Part shown: piece by piece, positions 1-5,946 of the stretch
Layout of the letters: every line of letters starts with the position of its first letter
Numbering within the stretch: position 1 is the stretch's first letter
NCBI GenBank assembly: GCA_009779525.1
Contig: WREB01000081.1
Coordinates: 1-5,946 of the forward strand
DNA length: 5,946 bases
Origin: Defluviitaleaceae bacterium
GTDB taxonomy: Bacteria > Bacillota_A > Clostridia > Lachnospirales > WQUN01
Direction of reading: 5' to 3'
Program-made: the position numbers and the translations under genes
Notes under the pieces: generated by a model
Told to the model about the DNA's origin: nothing
The model's input: only the letters and a program-made list of their open reading frames with translations
The model's database searches: none

Positions 1-209
1 AAATCTTCGGAAAAATCCGAGGCGCGGTCGAAATATATGAAATTCCACGCTCCGTTTAGGCTTTGGAAGTACGGTGAAAGCCCCCGCTTTAAGCTTAAAA
101 GCGACAAGTCGTCCGGGAGGTTTCCGCGCTCGAACGGTATGTAGAAGGAACGCGGCTCTTCCCTGTTTTCATTCGTGACCCGCGGATTTTCGTAGTTGCT
201 AAATTTTAT
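1..209 (-). CDS. lacZ: Beta-galactosidase (GH2, LacZ type), N-terminal 69 codons, cut by window edge
   Basis: The minus strand is open from 209 to the window edge and encodes a typical LacZ N-terminus. Residues 6-26 show the Y-ENP-x-VT-x2-NRE-x2-PRS-x2-IPF signature, and residues 50-60 show SLNGAWNFIYF, as at the start of the sugar-binding jelly-roll domain of large GH2 beta-galactosidases (about 1000 residues). Such enzymes hydrolyse terminal beta-D-galactosides such as lactose. The catalytic domain lies outside the window, so activity cannot be judged. An in-frame TAA at 227-225, the stop of the upstream phosphoesterase gene, limits how far the start can lie upstream. No ATG or GTG lies in frame between that stop and the conserved region, and the first TTG falls at residue 35, after the first motif. 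The best start is therefore ATA at 209-207, nine bases after a G-rich ribosome site. The family call is secure; the start codon is an inference. There is no signal peptide, so it is probably cytoplasmic. Confidence 0.88.
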   Translation of the reverse strand, partial: MKFSNYENPRVTNENREEPRSFYIPFERGNLPDDLSLLSLKRGLSPYFQSLNGAWNFIYFDRASDFSED

Positions 210-226
210 TTCGTCCCGCCCCCTTT
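210..226 (-). promoter_or_regulatory. Ribosome binding site placing the lacZ start at AUA
   Basis: Read on the minus strand, AAAGGGGG (226-219) is followed by a nine-base spacer and then ATA at 209-207. AAGGGGG can pair with the 16S anti-Shine-Dalgarno sequence with one G-U wobble. The site overlaps the TAA stop of the phosphoesterase gene, which suggests translational coupling. The same nine-base spacing precedes the starts at 1583 and 3775, which supports ATA as the real start. Confidence 0.6.
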
Positions 227-1583
227 AATTTAATGAAAAACTCGCGTTGTTGTCGGCCGGCTCAAGGTCGACCCACAATCCGTCGAGCACGTATTGCTGC
301 ATGAAAAGTATGAAGCGCCCCCAAACGCTGAGGCGGCTTTTGTCGAGCTCCGGGCGCATGTTGGGATCCTCGTCGCCGTAATAATGGGCGACGAAGGCGT
401 CCCCGACCGCGTTTGAAATTATGTCCGCGTCGAGTCCTTTAACCATGTATGACTCTAGCGTCTTCAGCGCCTCGAGCGCGACCGTCTGCTTGACGAAAGC
501 GTTTGCGCCGTCGGCGAAATCCGTCCCGGGGCGAAGCGAATCGACGATGGTTTTGGTCTCTACTTTAAACGCGTTGCCTTCTATCTTGCAAAACCTGATC
601 GGGCAGGGAGCGGTGACAAGCGATCCGGTTTCGACGTCGTAAAGGTATCCGCCGTTTTCATATTCACCCCTCGTTATGTCCTGCGCGTGGTAGTGGCCGG
701 TGAAGATGATCCTTACGCCGTAGGAAGCTAGAACCTCGCCGAATCTCGCGTAATCCTCGATCAAATATTTTGGGTGGAGCTTGCGCTGCCCGTCCCAATG
801 CTCAACCGCCCCGTGGTGCATCATCGCGACGACCGCGACTTCATTTTTCTGCGCGTATAAAAGCGCCTCGACGATCCAATCCATCGTCTCCTGCGAGACG
901 TTTCCGCCGGTTATGCAGCCGGTCTCGTCCGTGTTTTCGCGGTGGCGGCACGAATCGATCGCGAGAAGCCAAAGGCCGTCAGTCAATTCGGCGACGTAAC
1001 TGAGCGAATCCGGATCCCTCATGACCGCCCCGCCGTAGCCGAAGTTTGCGTAGATATCCGCGAAATCCGCTTCGCTTACGGTTTCGACCCGCGAGGTTGC
1101 GCCGCCCGAGTAGCTGACGGCGTCCGGGTTGTTGACGTCGTGGTTGCCTGGTATGACGTATGCGTTTATGCCGGCTTCCTTCAGCCGGCCGAGCTTTTCG
1201 GCTACTATCAGATGGTTAATCAATTCGCCGTCCTTAGTCATGTCGCCGCTAACGAGCACGAAATCCACGCCCGCTTTGATAATTTCGCCTATCGCCAGGT
1301 CAAGCAGCTCCTCGCTTTCCAAAAGCAGTTTCCTATCCGAATAAAGCGTTTCCTCAAACGCGGCTCCGGATACGCCGAGGGAATGGTCGTAGATATGCAA
1401 GTCCGATACCACCGCGAAGCTCGCCGCCGGATACGCTGGAAACGCCGCGTTTCCGGCGTTGTACGCGTACTCAAGTTTCGGCCGGCTATCAAGCCAGCTG
1501 GCGGTAAAAAAATAACCCGCGCCCACCGCGGCAAGCGCGAGTATCACAAGTAAAAAGATCCTGCCCCTTTTTTTGCGTTTCAT
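225..1583 (-). CDS. Membrane-anchored calcineurin-like metallophosphoesterase
   Basis: This 452-residue protein has the full set of metal-binding motifs of the calcineurin-like phosphoesterase superfamily: SDLH (D61, H63), SGDMTKDGE (G113-D114), PGNHD (N147, H148), MMHHG (H256-H257) and TGHYH (H297, H299). Such enzymes hold two divalent metals and hydrolyse phosphomonoesters or phosphodiesters; the substrate here cannot be told. A basic N-terminus followed by a hydrophobic stretch (residues 9-26) looks like an uncleaved signal anchor, so the catalytic domain should face outside. No lipobox cysteine is present. About 120 residues after the last motif form a mostly helical C-terminal extension of unknown role. 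The ATG start lies 18 bases after the stop of atpD, with AGAAAGG about nine bases upstream. The gene is co-directional with atpB and atpD and is probably read through from them, although a functional link to the ATPase is not evident. All metal ligands are intact, so it should be active. Confidence 0.9.
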   Translation of the reverse strand: MKRKKRGRIFLLVILALAAVGAGYFFTASWLDSRPKLEYAYNAGNAAFPAYPAASFAVVSDLHIYDHSLGVSGAAFEETLYSDRKLLLESEELLDLAIGEIIKAGVDFVLVSGDMTKDGELINHLIVAEKLGRLKEAGINAYVIPGNHDVNNPDAVSYSGGATSRVETVSEADFADIYANFGYGGAVMRDPDSLSYVAELTDGLWLLAIDSCRHRENTDETGCITGGNVSQETMDWIVEALLYAQKNEVAVVAMMHHGAVEHWDGQRKLHPKYLIEDYARFGEVLASYGVRIIFTGHYHAQDITRGEYENGGYLYDVETGSLVTAPCPIRFCKIEGNAFKVETKTIVDSLRPGTDFADGANAFVKQTVALEALKTLESYMVKGLDADIISNAVGDAFVAHYYGDEDPNMRPELDKSRLSVWGRFILFMQQYVLDGLWVDLEPADNNASFSLN

Positions 1584-1601: not shown

Positions 1602-2216
1602 TTATAAATTGGACTTGATTTTTTTTTGCCTTGTAAATTCGTCGCGCTCGCGTTCTTCTAGCGTATCCTGTATCGTTTTCACCCGCGTCTCGAATTTGGG
1701 GATCGTCACGTTTTTTAGCGCGTTCGCCCTCTTCGTCGTCTTCCGGATATTTAGCGCGAGGTTTCTAGCGGAATTTTCTACCGAGGCGAGGCGGATTAAT
1801 ATTTCCTTCGCCTCGCTGAATTTTATCGTAGCCGAATCGAGCGCCGCCGTCGTGCTTCCGAGGCCGTAGCAGGGAGAGTCGCCGCCTGGTGCGCCGCTCG
1901 CCGCGATAGGTACTTCCACGCCCATGATGCTTCGCATCCTGACGTTTACCGATTCGTCCGCCGGAACGCCGTAACTGAATAGCTCGACATTGTATATGCC
2001 CATCTCGATATTTGCTTCCTGAAGCGCCGCGTAGGCTGACGCGAACACCCGCGCGGCGTTTTTTTGCAAGTCGCCCGCCTGTTCGTTAAGCAGCATCAGT
2101 TCGCGGATGAGAACGCCGCGCTTTTTGTCGAGCAGCTCGTATCCCTGCTTAGAGAGCGCCAGCGTATTCTTCGCCCGCAGCAGATTGCCCTTGGTCGGGA
2201 ACGCCGCCTGTTCCAT
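1602..2216 (-). CDS. atpD: V-type ATP synthase subunit D (central stalk)
   Basis: This 204-residue protein has the usual length and pattern of V/A-type ATPase subunit D, the coiled-coil shaft that rotates inside the A3B3 head. The N-terminal helix has the family signatures PTKGNLLRAK (residues 7-16) and LLDKKRGVLIREL (28-40). The C-terminal helix (about 130-200) includes the RKTTKRANALKNVTIPKFE motif and a basic tail. The middle (about 75-125) is the less conserved globular part, with a Gly/Ser-rich stretch around 107-120. Its ATG shares one base with the atpB stop (TGATG), so translation is probably coupled. The nearest AAGAAGG lies about 13 bases upstream, rather far, which also favours reinitiation by ribosomes ending atpB. 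The B-D order matches most bacterial and archaeal operons of this type. This is the V-type subunit D, not the F-type beta subunit that shares the symbol. Confidence 0.96.
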   Translation of the reverse strand: MEQAAFPTKGNLLRAKNTLALSKQGYELLDKKRGVLIRELMLLNEQAGDLQKNAARVFASAYAALQEANIEMGIYNVELFSYGVPADESVNVRMRSIMGVEVPIAASGAPGGDSPCYGLGSTTAALDSATIKFSEAKEILIRLASVENSARNLALNIRKTTKRANALKNVTIPKFETRVKTIQDTLEERERDEFTRQKKIKSNL

Positions 2217-3601
2217 CAGGCGCGAACCGCCTTCTTAGCCGAATAAAATTTTTCCAGCGTTCGCGGGTCGATTCGGTCCAGCTGCGATTTGGGCAGCATG
2301 CCAAGCAGCTCCCAGCCTAAGTCGAGCGTTTCGCAAATCGCGCGGTTTTCGTACGCGCTTTGATTTAGGTACCGTTCCTCAAACGCCTTTCCGAACGCGA
2401 TGAACTGCTTGTCGATTTCGGCGAGCTCCTCTTCGCCGATGACCGAGGCGAGCGCCCTCGCCTCCTCCACGCGGGAATAGGACGAAAAAAGCTGGTTGGC
2501 TTGCTCTGGATGGTCGGTGCGCGTGAAGCCCTCCCCTATCCCGTCCTTCATGAGCCTCGATAACGACGGGAGTATGGAGACCGGCGGATACACCCCGCGC
2601 TGCGAAAGGCCCCTGTCGAGCACGATCTGGCCTTCGGTAATGTACCCGGTCAAGTCCGGCACCGGATGAGTTATGTCGTCGTTCGGCATCGTAAGTATTG
2701 GTATTTGAGTGACCGAGCCTTTTCGCCCCTCCACTATTCCGGCGCGTTCGTAGACGGATGCGAATTCGGAATAAAGATAGCCAGGATAACCCTTCCTGCT
2801 AGGTATTTCGCCGCGCATTGACGATATTTCGCGAAGCGCCTCCGCGTACGCGGTCATGTCGGTCAGTATGACGAGTATGTGCATCCCGCGTTCAAAGGCA
2901 AGGTATTCGGCTGCGGTCAGCGCCGCCATCGGGGTGTTGACGCGCTCCATAACGGGGTCGTTCGCGAGGTTTAAGAACATGACCGCGCGTTCGCGCGCGC
3001 CGTTTTCCTCGAACGATTTTCTAAAAAATTCCGCGACATCGTGTTTCACGCCCATCGCCGCGAAAACGACCGCGAAATTTTTTCCGTCTTCGCCGGAGAT
3101 CGACGCCTGGCTCGCTATTTGTGCCGCAAGCCTGTCGTGCGGCAGGCCGCTCCCGGAAAAAATCGGAAGTTTTTGCCCGCGGATCAGCGTGCAGAGCCCG
3201 TCGATCGAAGATATTCCCGTCTGGATGTAGTCGCGGGGATATAAGCGCATCACCGGGTTTATCGCGCGGCCCCTGATTTCGCGCACGCAATCGGCGAAAA
3301 CTTCGCCCATCCCGTCAAGGGGCCTTCCCATCCCGTCGAAAGTGCGGCCGAGAATTTCTTCTGAAAGGCGCATCTCCATCGGCTTTCCGGTGAAACGCGC
3401 GACCGTGTTTTCGAGGGAAAGCGAACCGGTCCCCTCGAATACGAGCACGACCGCCTTGTCGCCGTCGATCTCGACTACGCGTCCGGTTCGCCTTTGGCCG
3501 CCCTCCACGGCAAAAGAAACGATTTCGTCGTACGCGGGATCTATCACGCCGTCAAGCACGACGAGCGAACCGTTTATTTCGTTGAGGCCGACGTATTCCA
3601 A
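2216..3601 (-). CDS. atpB: V-type ATP synthase subunit B (non-catalytic head subunit)
   Basis: This 461-residue protein is a full-length V/A-type ATPase B subunit, which alternates with subunit A in the A3B3 hexamer. Residues 1-75 form the beta-barrel, with GSLVVLDGV near the start. The nucleotide-binding-like domain has [14 protein letters not shown] (149-162) where catalytic subunits carry a Walker A loop, as is normal for B. Also present are [16 protein letters not shown] (245-260), GYPGYLYS (271-278) and [12 protein letters not shown] (345-356). The helical C-terminus ends in a basic tail. The start is TTG at 3601-3599: an in-frame TGA lies two codons upstream, and AGGCGGTGA precedes it at good spacing. 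The subunit A gene, normally directly upstream, is separated by about 2.1 kb containing a gene on the other strand, so atpB begins its own transcript here. It overlaps atpD by one base. Confidence 0.97.
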
Positions 3602-3604
3602 TTT

Positions 3605-3613
3605 TCACCGCCT
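3605..3613 (-). promoter_or_regulatory. Ribosome binding site for the TTG start of atpB
   Basis: AGGCGGTGA on the minus strand differs from AGGAGGTGA at one base and lies just upstream of TTG at 3601. The last three bases are an in-frame TGA, so no start further upstream is possible in this frame. TTG is therefore very likely the real start. Confidence 0.7.
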
Positions 3614-3630
3614 GCGTTTTCGGAATGTTT

Positions 3631-3659
3631 ATTTTAGCACGGAAAAATCGTAAATAAAA
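3631..3659 (-). promoter_or_regulatory. Possible extended -10 promoter for atpB-atpD
   Basis: On the minus strand, TGCTAAAAT (3639-3631) fits an extended -10 element, TGn plus a hexamer one base from TATAAT. With a 17-base spacer the -35 position holds TTTTAT, a weak match. Transcription would start near 3624, giving a leader of about 22 bases before the TTG. The neighbouring gene runs the other way and atpA ends in a terminator, so atpB needs a promoter in this interval. The exact element is an inference. Confidence 0.45.
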
Positions 3660-3682
3660 TTAAAAATGTTGCGCCTTCGGGG

Positions 3683-3712
3683 TTACTTTTTACTTGCCAT
3701 ATATGTTATTAT
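3683..3712 (+). promoter_or_regulatory. Possible extended -10 promoter for the secreted-protein gene
   Basis: TGTTATTAT at 3704-3712 fits an extended -10 element (TGn plus TATTAT, one base from consensus). TTACTT at 3683-3688, 18 bases upstream of the hexamer, is a poor -35. The start would be near 3719, leaving a leader of roughly 55 bases. The stretch between this and the opposing promoter (about 3640-3682) is AT-rich with no clear operator. Confidence 0.42.
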
Positions 3713-3759
3713 GCTACAGCCGGAGTTATCATCGGGAAATTATCAACGACAAACCAATG

Positions 3760-3765
3760 AGGAGG
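3760..3765 (+). promoter_or_regulatory. Ribosome binding site fixing the start at 3775
   Basis: A perfect AGGAGG is followed by a nine-base spacer and ATG at 3775. It lies inside the coding sequence of the two longer options (ATG at 3757, TTG at 3694), neither of which has a comparable site. The signal peptide also reads naturally only from 3775. Confidence 0.85.
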
Positions 3766-3774
3766 CTCGTTTTT

Positions 3775-5673
3775 ATGTTCAAACGCTTCAGGTGGATTGC
3801 GATCGCCGCGGCGGCGGTTTGCCTTATCTTGCCCCATCCGTTCGTTACGGCGCAGGCGGCGCCCGCCAGGATTTTCCTGCTTTCGGCAAGCAGCGAAACA
3901 ATCAATCCGGGCAGGGCGGTAACCTTAACCGTCGAAACGAACGTAGACACGCAGTTCGTTATAATCGAGTACGACGGCAAGCAAACCAACGCGGAATACC
4001 AGATGACGGATTCGTCGGGATACAAGGTTTGGACCCTGACGTTTTCGCCGTCCGTCTCGCAGTTGGTGTACGCCTACGCCAACCAGACGAACACGACCGA
4101 CAAAGCCAGCTTCAGGGGAATACACATTGACGTGGTCGGTTCGTCGTCCGGATCGGTCCAGGCGCCCTCGCAGCCGTCCGGCGTGATAATACACAGCGTC
4201 GGAGCGAACCAAAGCCGGGTGAACAAGGGCGACACGATCACCTACACGATCGAAACCAACGACCGCGCCAACGACGTTTGGGTGAGGTTCGACGAGGGGC
4301 TCTACGCTAAGGCGAGCCTTCGCGCTTCGGGTCCGAGCGACGTGAGGAGCTGGACGGTCACTATACGGCCCTCCTATTCGCAGACGCTGATAATATCCGC
4401 AAACACCTCTTACGCGGTGGCGGGCGCGGTAACTGCGGAAGAATACATTTCGGTGGAAGAATCGCCGCCCGTCATTCACAGCGCGAGGTCGAGCAGGTCC
4501 TCGATATCGCCGGGCGGTTCCGTCACGCTGACGATCACGACCAACGCCTCGGTCAACAACGTCTGGGCCAATTTTGACAGCCAGTCTTCCAACGCGAGGC
4601 TCGCAAGCAACTCGAACGGCGTAAAGACGTGGACCGTATCCGTGAGGCCTTCAAGGACGCAGCGGGTCGGCGTCTACGCCAACGTCGACGGTTCCGAAAA
4701 AGGCGCCGCGTCGACGAACGTTTCGATTTCAGTTTCGACTTCCTACGATTATACGTACCCGTCGTACTACAACCCGCCGTCTTCACCGACAGCGGGCGGC
4801 GCGTCGATCAGCAGCGCGAACGCCAACTGGAACTACGGCTCGGCGTATACCTACAACAACGCGGTGACGGTGACCGTCGTAACCAATTCGCGCGCTAACC
4901 ACGTTTGGGTCGAAAGCGGCTGGGGTTCGGTCAACCTTAGCTTCAGGTCGCAGGATTCGTTCGGAAACAAGACATGGTCGCTTACGTTCACGCCGTCAAG
5001 CTACTACGGGAGCGGTTATTACAGCGGCGGCTACTACGGATACGGATATGGCTACGGGTACGGGTACGGATACCCGGGTTCGGTTTGGTGCCCGGTCCAC
5101 CTTTCGTACTGGTGCACCGACATAACCTGCCCCTACTACTTCAGCAATTACGGAAACAACTACTTTAATTATTCGATGACCGTCTACGCGGGTTCGATAA
5201 GCGGTTCGAGGGAAGCCTCGAGAAGCGTCAACGTGGGAAATTCGAGTTATTGGGGAGGCGGCTATTACTATCCGACCTACCCGACTTACCCGACTTACCC
5301 GACTTACCCGTCGTATCCGTCATATCCGTCGTACCCGTATTATCCGGGCTATCCGGGCTACTGGGGCAACTGGGGAATTTCCTCGATAACGGGCGTGACG
5401 ACCACCGTTACGGACGTTTCAAACGATCCGGTTATATTCACCGTCGTGACCGACCACACCGTCACGTCGCTCACCGTCTACAACGGTTCGGGCGTTCCGG
5501 TATCGGCGACTTGCGCGGTAACCGGGACGACGCCCACTTCCAAGTCGTGGAGCGTATCGATCCCGACCAATGCGCTCGCCGCGGGCGCTTACGCCTATTC
5601 GATTGCTGCGGGCAGCACGCTTTATTCGCCCATATACAGCAACTCGTACCCGATCGCGTTCACGATTACCTGA
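3775..5673 (+). CDS. Secreted protein with five Ig-like repeats and Tyr/Gly/Pro-rich inserts; not a recognised family
   Basis: This 632-residue protein starts with a Sec signal peptide: basic MFKRFR, a hydrophobic core (7-20) and likely cleavage after AQA at 28. The rest is a chain of five diverged beta-rich repeats at about 31-120, 137-227, 232-320, 343-487 and 535-632. Each has a hydrophobic start, a V/I-T-x-T-x-x-T-(N/D) strand, usually a VW strand, then W-(T/S)-(V/L)-(T/S) and a Y-A strand, as in small bacterial Ig-like domains. Repeat 4 is interrupted at about 409-465 by a Tyr/Gly-rich insert with (GY)6 and C439-x2-H442-x4-C447-x4-C452. Between repeats 4 and 5 is a linker of ten P-x-Y units (500-529). 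There is no LPXTG, S-layer homology domain or C-terminal membrane helix, so it is either released or held non-covalently. A role in adhesion or envelope structure is a guess. The gene has its own promoter region and terminator and lies opposite to, and between, atpA and atpB. Confidence 0.9.
   Translation: MFKRFRWIAIAAAAVCLILPHPFVTAQAAPARIFLLSASSETINPGRAVTLTVETNVDTQFVIIEYDGKQTNAEYQMTDSSGYKVWTLTFSPSVSQLVYAYANQTNTTDKASFRGIHIDVVGSSSGSVQAPSQPSGVIIHSVGANQSRVNKGDTITYTIETNDRANDVWVRFDEGLYAKASLRASGPSDVRSWTVTIRPSYSQTLIISANTSYAVAGAVTAEEYISVEESPPVIHSARSSRSSISPGGSVTLTITTNASVNNVWANFDSQSSNARLASNSNGVKTWTVSVRPSRTQRVGVYANVDGSEKGAASTNVSISVSTSYDYTYPSYYNPPSSPTAGGASISSANANWNYGSAYTYNNAVTVTVVTNSRANHVWVESGWGSVNLSFRSQDSFGNKTWSLTFTPSSYYGSGYYSGGYYGYGYGYGYGYGYPGSVWCPVHLSYWCTDITCPYYFSNYGNNYFNYSMTVYAGSISGSREASRSVNVGNSSYWGGGYYYPTYPTYPTYPTYPSYPSYPSYPYYPGYPGYWGNWGISSITGVTTTVTDVSNDPVIFTVVTDHTVTSLTVYNGSGVPVSATCAVTGTTPTSKSWSVSIPTNALAAGAYAYSIAAGSTLYSPIYSNSYPIAFTIT
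4999..5169 (+). other. Tyr/Gly-rich insertion with a C-H-C-C cluster inside Ig-like repeat 4
   Basis: Repeats 2 and 3 run directly from the W-T-V-(T/S) strand through RPS into the next strand. In repeat 4 about 57 residues (409-465) intervene between FTPS and the strand beginning YSMTVYAG. The insert starts with YYGSGYYSGGYY and six GY units, then holds Cys439, His442, Cys447 and Cys452 with spacing C-x2-H-x4-C-x4-C, and ends in an Asn/Tyr-rich stretch. The four residues could bind a metal or form disulfides. These are the only cysteines in the mature protein apart from Cys580. Confidence 0.75.
5032..5073 (+). repeat. Six-base tandem repeat encoding Tyr-Gly units
   Basis: Alternating tac/tat and gga/ggc/ggg codons encode YY followed by six GY units. 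The third bases vary, so the repeat is kept at protein level and is not a fresh slippage product. It lies in the insertion within Ig-like repeat 4. Confidence 0.85.
5272..5361 (+). repeat. Nine-base tandem repeat, ten copies, encoding Pro-x-Tyr
   Basis: Ten in-frame nine-base units encode PTY four times, PSY three times, PYY once and PGY twice. Units 2-4 are identical (ccgacttac) and unit 1 differs by one base, which points to recent copy-number change by slippage. Later units have diverged. Because the unit is nine bases, gain or loss would keep the frame. It forms an extended linker between Ig-like repeats 4 and 5. Confidence 0.93.
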
Positions 5674-5678
5674 TAAAC

Positions 5679-5723
5679 AAAAAAAAGGGCCGGCTTCGAT
5701 CGAAGCCGGCCCTTCGTCTTTTT
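5679..5723. terminator. Bidirectional intrinsic terminator between convergent genes
   Basis: A perfect 30-base palindrome (5685-5714) can form a GC-rich hairpin with a stem of 11 G/C-rich pairs plus two A-T pairs and a GATC loop. Eight A's on the left (5679-5686, the last two within the palindrome) give a U tract for minus-strand transcripts. On the right, CGTCTTTTT (5715-5723) gives a weaker U tract for plus-strand transcripts. It lies a few bases after the stops of both the secreted-protein gene (5673) and the atpA-like gene (5727), so it can end both. Confidence 0.92.
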
Positions 5724-5726
5724 ACG

Positions 5727-5946
5727 TCATCGCTTGTTTAATAATTTTCGTTCGTAGAACGCGTCTATTTCGTCAACATATTTACCGAACGAATCGATTC
5801 CTTGGTCCGAGTCGTACTTCATATTAATTATCCGCTCAAAGATCGCGTCTTCGCTTATTTCATTTATACTTATTGATTTCAAAAGCAATTTTTTACAAGC
5901 GTCGTGCAGGTGCAAAATAATTTTCATCATGTCGAGCTGCCTTGCG
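5727..5946 (-). CDS. atpA: Probable C-terminus of V-type ATP synthase subunit A, cut by window edge
   Basis: The minus-strand frame is open from the window edge to TGA at 5729-5727 and gives 72 residues starting ARQLDMMKIILHLHDAC. The pattern fits the helical C-terminus of V/A-type ATPase subunit A, the catalytic head subunit. These proteins typically have a Q-x2-M-(L/M)-K-x-I-L helix, then a helix with A-x3-L, a short loop (here ISINEISED) and a segment like RE-(K/R)-I-(A/G)-R-(M/A)-KY (here FERIINMKY), ending in an acidic helix. Here the end is GKYVDEIDAFYERKLLNKR. The position supports the call: subunit A normally precedes B, and atpB and atpD follow in the same direction. An independent small gene starting at ATG 5930 is possible, since AAGG lies nine bases upstream, but the frame stays open beyond it and that start would begin inside the conserved helix. 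The call rests on remembered family patterns from a short, variable region. The Walker A domain is outside the window. Confidence 0.72.
   Translation of the reverse strand, partial: ARQLDMMKIILHLHDACKKLLLKSISINEISEDAIFERIINMKYDSDQGIDSFGKYVDEIDAFYERKLLNKR

What the first reader, a model, noticed from the sequence alone, without database searches (positions are those of the whole stretch)
3602..5726. V-type ATPase operon split between A and B by an opposite-strand secreted-protein gene
The minus strand carries, in order, a probable atpA C-terminus, then atpB and atpD. A-B-D is one of the most constant gene orders in V/A-type ATPase operons. Here about 2.1 kb with a plus-strand gene, its own promoter region and a strong terminator sits between A and B. 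A and B form the hexameric head in equal amounts and are normally made from one message. The hairpin after atpA should stop transcription before atpB, so A and B must be balanced some other way. No transposase, terminal repeats or target duplication is visible, so the route of insertion is unclear.
Basis: partly seen in the sequence, partly recalled or inferred. Interest (0 to 1): 0.72.

Follow-up and report, generated by a model that had tools for sequence, protein, structure and literature searches.

The report
ATPase operon split by inserted gene
In an uncultured clostridial bacterium a gene for a surface-type protein sits between two ion-pump genes that are nearly always neighbours, and relatives show the same joint opened several times by other DNA, so the two halves of the pump's head need not come from one message.

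Summary
The window carries atpD and atpB of a V/A-type ATPase, the last 72 codons of atpA and, between A and B, 2,125 bp (3602-5726) with one opposite-strand gene. A very stable hairpin with a U-tract follows atpA. The nearest relative found (G006, AtpB 77% identical) has A and B 11 nt apart, so the gene entered an intact joint.

The insert encodes a signal-like helix and tandem Ig-like domains; 3 of 11 relatives searched carry members at other loci. Extended -10 motifs face both ways in the divergent spacer, one 38 nt before atpB; 0 of 28 relatives' atpB have it there.

The break is not unique. Of 79 assessable AtpB relatives, 76 have A within 309 bp of B, 3 do not. In the family of L001's genome 12 of 27 genomes with both genes are split, 10 of them with A and B on unlinked contigs. 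On an AtpB tree this needs 6 changes.

Best reading: operon breakage by insertion, with atpBD gaining its own promoter. The recurrence at A|B is the interesting part. Transcription is untested.

The parts
5727..5946 (-). 3' end of atpA (last 72 codons; runs off the window)
   Evidence: TIGR01043 E 7.8e-4, model 516-571/580; tblastn best G006 atpA E 1.5e-14
5684..5715 (.). two-way terminator hairpin between atpA and the inserted gene, U-tract strongest on the atpA strand
   Evidence: 14-pair stem; -29.5 kcal/mol minus strand, -26.9 plus strand, 0 of 200 shuffles as stable for either
3602..5726 (.). interval between atpA and atpB, absent from the nearest relative (11 nt there)
3775..5673 (+). 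inserted gene: 632-aa protein with signal-like N-terminal helix, about four Ig-like domains, Tyr/Gly- and Pro/Tyr-rich stretches
   Evidence: ORF; no family over cut-off; model and fold search; homologues
3704..3712 (+). extended -10 motif TGTTATTAT, candidate promoter of the inserted gene
   Evidence: motif chosen after reading the sequence
3631..3639 (-). extended -10 motif TGCTAAAAT, candidate promoter of atpB-atpD, 38 nt before the atpB start
   Evidence: absent within 150 nt upstream of atpB in 28 of 28 relatives
2216..3601 (-). atpB, V/A-type ATPase subunit B, TTG start
1602..2216 (-). atpD, V/A-type ATPase subunit D

Best explanation
An intact V/A-type ATPase operon (I-K-F-E-A-B-D in the nearest relative) was interrupted between A and B, in the window's lineage, by a self-contained gene for a secreted or surface Ig-repeat protein. 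The gene lies on the opposite strand, with a divergent promoter region on the atpB side and a two-way terminator on the atpA side. The operon is thereby cut into two transcription units: one ending with atpA at the hairpin, and atpB-atpD starting from a promoter in the divergent spacer about 40 nt before atpB. A and B are then made from separate messages and meet after synthesis. Shown: gene content, the intact joint in the sister, the hairpin, the motif. Inferred: direction of the event, promoter use, separate transcripts.
For: Both flanks have G006 as best hit. G006 has A and B 11 nt apart and homologues of the inserted gene elsewhere. 76 of 79 assessable AtpB relatives have A within 309 bp of B. 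Terminator on the atpA strand. Extended -10 facing atpB, not found at 28 of 28 other atpB genes. The insert's composition matches its surroundings (GC3 0.76 against 0.69-0.71; codon-usage correlation 0.75-0.85). Other A|B interruptions show that cells of this group live with the split.
Against: No RNA data. The two-hexamer promoter scan finds nothing in the spacer. The solitary atpB genes of relatives lack the -10 motif too, so it is no requirement, and 3 of 200 shuffles gave as many hits as the window. The nearest relative is only 77% identical, so the event cannot be dated or its exact ends fixed. The atpA piece is short; it is 37-44% identical to six relatives that are 36-71% identical to each other there (in which the G006 and G001 rows ran past their stops, so their figures are rough).
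Confidence: 0.8

Rival explanations
1. Assembly artefact: the contig joins two loci that are not neighbours, and atpA and atpB are still adjacent, or each elsewhere, in the real genome.
For: No genome or reads are held for the window; the atpA piece is short and at the low end of identity among relatives.
Against: Both flanks have G006 as best hit. The low GC of the atpA end (0.37) is shared by relatives (0.37-0.55 there, lower than the whole gene in all ten measured). A chance join exactly between the end of atpA and the start of atpB is unlikely (inference).
Confidence: 0.08
2. Interrupted on the DNA but still one functional operon: transcription reads through the hairpin and the antisense gene into atpB, as could be the case in G001, whose inserted genes lie on the operon's strand.
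For: In G001 and L016 the inserts are codirectional and no strong terminator is found after G001's atpA. No two-hexamer promoter is found before the window's atpB.
Against: In the window the hairpin follows atpA at once with a U-tract, and 1.9 kb of antisense gene would have to be crossed.
Confidence: 0.1
3. The antisense gene was put there by a mobile element or integron-like process that uses the A-B joint as a target.
For: The same joint holds different cargo in G001, G005 and L016.
Against: No transposase, integrase or repeats at the window's ends; other joints break too, B|D in 3 of 90.
Confidence: 0.05

Closest known systems
V/A-type ATPase operons of Clostridia (C-I-K-F-E-A-B-D)
   Same: Subunit families, strand and the B-D neighbourhood
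   Different: A and B are 2.1 kb apart with an antisense gene and a terminator between; the median A|B gap is 21 bp in the 95 joints measured in relatives
F-type ATP synthase genes in separate transcription units, beta-epsilon apart from gamma-alpha (PMC5709465, section 16 read)
   Same: The two head subunits come from separate units
   Different: Another ATPase type, and transcription units predicted by computation there; here the split recurs by insertion and dispersal within one group
Disrupted A-type ATP synthase gene cluster of Ignicoccus hospitalis (PMC2614490, passages seen)
   Same: A conserved A/V-type ATPase cluster broken up
   Different: An archaeon in which about 180 clusters are said to be disrupted; the passage does not say which joints
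Operon decay by gene insertion ('The life-cycle of operons', Price et al. 2006; recalled, paper not held; seen only as a citation)
   Same: An inserted gene splits an operon and the parts take up their own promoters
   Different: Nothing essential; here the split parts are the two alternating head subunits

Membership tests
V/A-type ATPase operon | subunit B with N-terminal barrel, nucleotide-binding and V/A C-terminal domains | tested here: met
   PF02874, PF00006, PF22919 over cut-off; NF003235 706.8 bits against 349
V/A-type ATPase operon | subunit D next to B | tested here: met
   PF01813 176.7 bits; the ORFs share base 2216
V/A-type ATPase operon | subunit A directly before B | tested here: not met
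   atpA ends 2,125 bp from atpB with an antisense gene between
V/A-type ATPase operon | full-length A, and C, E, F, I, K upstream | not testable with these tools
   the window ends inside atpA and no genome is held
Transposable element insertion | transposase, terminal inverted repeats or target duplication | tested here: not met
   no such product; longest exact shared edge word 7 nt, inverted
Secreted Ig-like repeat protein | tandem Ig-like beta sandwiches | tested here: met
   repeated strand units (overall pLDDT 61, pTM 0.32, most ten-residue blocks 70-90 within the domains); fold search lists multi-Ig proteins, global TM only about 0.1-0.2
Secreted Ig-like repeat protein | signal peptide | tested here: inconclusive
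   hydrophobic helix at residues 3-18 followed by a disordered stretch; no signal-peptide predictor available

The most novel reading that the evidence does not exclude
In one family of Clostridia the joint between the two head subunits of a rotary V/A-ATPase is a recurrent break point, opened independently five or more times by unrelated inserts or by full dispersal, so that equal amounts of A and B are routinely supplied from separate messages. These genomes would then be natural experiments on whether co-transcription is needed for 1:1 assembly of an alternating hexamer.
Probability: 0.35. Interest if true: 0.55.

Novelty: new variant of a known kind. Interest (0 to 1): 0.4.

Why it matters
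A and B alternate in the hexameric head and are needed in equal number, and their adjacency is usually taken to mean that a shared message matters. Intact, interrupted and dispersed arrangements side by side in one family (AtpB 56-77% identical to the window) would let that idea be tested by RNA-seq and ribosome profiling. Operon breakage as such is ordinary.

Tried and rejected
Misassembly as main reading: weakened by the agreement of the two flanks and by the GC dip at the end of atpA that relatives share; not excluded.

Distant foreign origin of the insert: codon use and GC match the neighbours.

Mobile-element route: nothing found.

Functional link between insert and ATPase: no evidence. 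Inserts at the same joint elsewhere are unrelated: Fic, GH32 and SLH-domain proteins in G001; a BAAT-like hydrolase, a protein without family and a GNAT piece in G005; AmiS/UreI in L016. The UreI case could relate to pH but is single.

Wider homologue search with a four-member profile gave only the same two proteins.

Papers: the searches listed no paper that describes A|B breaks in clostridial V-type operons; I saw listings, plus passages of six papers, one section of one and no hit in another. (stoichiometry, termite MAGs) served other points; (cyanobacterial atp operon) listed none.

Not done: an order- or class-wide gene-order survey, which the unused genome searches would have allowed; the neighbourhood of atpA in G018, G020, G023, G024 and G025 was not fetched.

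Full report
WHAT IS THERE. The window (no genome held) carries on the minus strand the last 72 codons of atpA, then after 2,125 bp atpB and atpD, then a calcineurin-type phosphoesterase gene (PF00149 E 3e-13). atpB and atpD are certain by Pfam and NCBIfam. The atpA end is not named by Pfam, but TIGR01043 matches at E 7.8e-4 over model positions 516-571 of 580, and tblastn against held loci gives 89 rows, best G006 atpA at E 1.5e-14, with L052 equal in bits. Between lies one plus-strand ORF, 632 aa from ATG 3775, preceded by GAGGAGG.

THE ENDS OF THE INTERVAL. Just after the atpA stop stands a 14-pair hairpin with a U-tract on the atpA strand (-29.5 kcal/mol; plus strand -26.9; 0 of 200 shuffles as stable in either case). 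At the other side atpB and the inserted gene diverge across 173 bp. The two-hexamer promoter scan found nothing there. The extended -10 motif TGNTAWWAT occurs three times in the window (0.36 expected, 3 of 200 shuffles reach three); two of the three are in this spacer, one for each gene, the atpB one 38 nt before its TTG start. I chose the motif after reading the sequence, so the excess is suggestive only. 0 of 28 relatives' atpB genes, 15 next to atpA and 13 not, have it within 150 nt upstream. This fits acquisition with the insert, but shows also that solitary atpB genes manage without it.

WAS IT AN INSERTION? The closest AtpB found is that of G006 (77%; grouped with the window at SH-aLRT 91, not starred). 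G006 has I-K-F-E-A-B-D in one run with an 11-nt A-B spacer, and its homologues of the inserted gene are elsewhere: one beside genes that I read from recall as rpsF and ssb, one on another contig. So the joint was most likely intact and was opened in the window's line.

HOW UNUSUAL? Of 80 AtpB relatives from genome contigs (the best 80 of a capped list), 79 have enough upstream DNA; in 76 the A-B gap is 3-309 bp. The exceptions are L001 (3,136 bp), L016 (761 bp) and L006 (no A in 2.0 kb). L001's title bears Cu122, the code of Cubitermes ugandensis (PMC7024585, passages seen); the sources of L006 and L016 were not established (one search found nothing).

THE SAME JOINT IN RELATIVES. The family of L001's genome holds 38 genomes, G001 (L001's own) included. 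G005 is L006's genome; its A and B contigs share a 119-nt identical end, which gives an A-B distance of 2,294 bp, holding a BAAT-like hydrolase, a protein without family and a GNAT piece. G001 has Fic, GH32 and SLH-domain genes there, on the operon's strand. Of 27 genomes with both A and B of the window's type or the G013-G034 type, 15 have them adjacent and 12 do not: G001, G005, and ten with A and B on unlinked contigs (G018, G020, G023-G027, G030, G033, G034). In all ten the stretch held around B shows no other subunit. A's neighbourhood was fetched for five of the ten (G026, G027, G030, G033, G034) and shows other subunit genes upstream; genes around B were read for five (G024, G026, G030, G033, G034). 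Several sit far inside long contigs (G030: A at 60 kb of 224 kb, B at 99 kb of 114 kb). The other 11 of 38 were not counted: G002 has only a second ATPase type (A-B adjacent); G004, G019, G022, G031, G032 show A but no B at E 1e-150; G021, G029, G036-G038 show neither at the thresholds used.

INDEPENDENCE. On a 50-row AtpB tree (quick IQ-TREE; 20 of the non-family loci chosen by me as rows, the others of the 108 proteins collected left out) the split state needs 6 changes, 5 without L016. Holding window, G001 and G005 together is rejected (p-AU 5.5e-5), with the caution that I named that group after seeing the tree. The nearest rows with an intact joint are G006 for the window, G007-G010 for G001 (support 87, open fork), G012 for G005.

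OTHER JOINTS. Gaps over 600 bp: A|B 2 of 95, B|D 3 of 90, E|A 1 of 80, I|K 0 of 86, K|F 0 of 79, C|I 0 of 77, F|E 0 of 72. This count leaves out the window and the genomes whose A and B are on different contigs, so it understates A|B; but D is also away from B in the G013-G034 type. A|B is a frequent, not the only, break point, and a preference for it is not shown.

THE INSERTED PROTEIN. No family over cut-off. Two homologues among 7,992 scored candidates, 29-33% identical. Of 11 family genomes searched, G006 and G035 hold clear copies, G005 a weak one, 8 none; the other 27 were not searched. The model (pLDDT 61 overall; residues 409-464 and 490-632 below 50) has an N-terminal helix and about four Ig-like sandwiches. 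The fold search lists multi-Ig proteins with low global TM. A surface or secreted role is inferred.

MECHANISM AND STANDING. Most likely the operon now gives two messages, one ending after atpA and one starting before atpB, and A and B meet after synthesis. The anatomy is shown; promoter use and transcript ends are not. Separate units for the two head subunits are known for F-type enzymes (PMC5709465, section 16) and a disrupted A-type cluster is known in Ignicoccus (PMC2614490, passages). So this is a new variant of a known kind of event. Its recurrence at one joint in one bacterial group did not appear in the searches.

Noticed in passing
genomes G013-G018, G020, G023-G028, G030, G033 (e.g. 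loci L130, L131, L174): V/A-ATPases with no subunit F found (PF01990 matches 15 of 38 genomes, none of these 15). In 13 of them (not G028, G033) subunit D matches its profile in two pieces with about positions 72-107 missing; A mostly aligns only to about residue 525-535 of 589 (G016 to 561, G033 to 586) and B mostly to about 435 of 461. Controls: two of eight control genomes with D also show no F by this profile. Loss of F with part of D would be coherent if that part carries F (recalled).
   Followed up: partly
window 3-224 (-): Open frame after a stop that reads like the start of a beta-galactosidase (recalled resemblance; Pfam finds nothing), with an AGGGGGCGG run before it but no ATG, GTG or TTG before residue 40; a rare start or a frameshift is possible.
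   Followed up: partly
L001:7845-7969: Five copies of a 25-bp unit just before atpB, at the edge of that genome's A|B insert; such repeats could promote recombination.
   Followed up: no
L029, L076, L010: B|D joints opened by 6.3, 1.8 and 0.6 kb.
   Followed up: no
G002, G003, G005, G007, G008, G010, G012: A second, distant V-type ATPase (AtpB 53-55% identical to the window) with A and B adjacent.
   Followed up: no
window 225-1583 (-): Calcineurin-like phosphoesterase gene directly after atpD, with a match to the anti-phage phosphoesterase model NF053862 far below its cut-off (41.7 of 420 bits).
   Followed up: no
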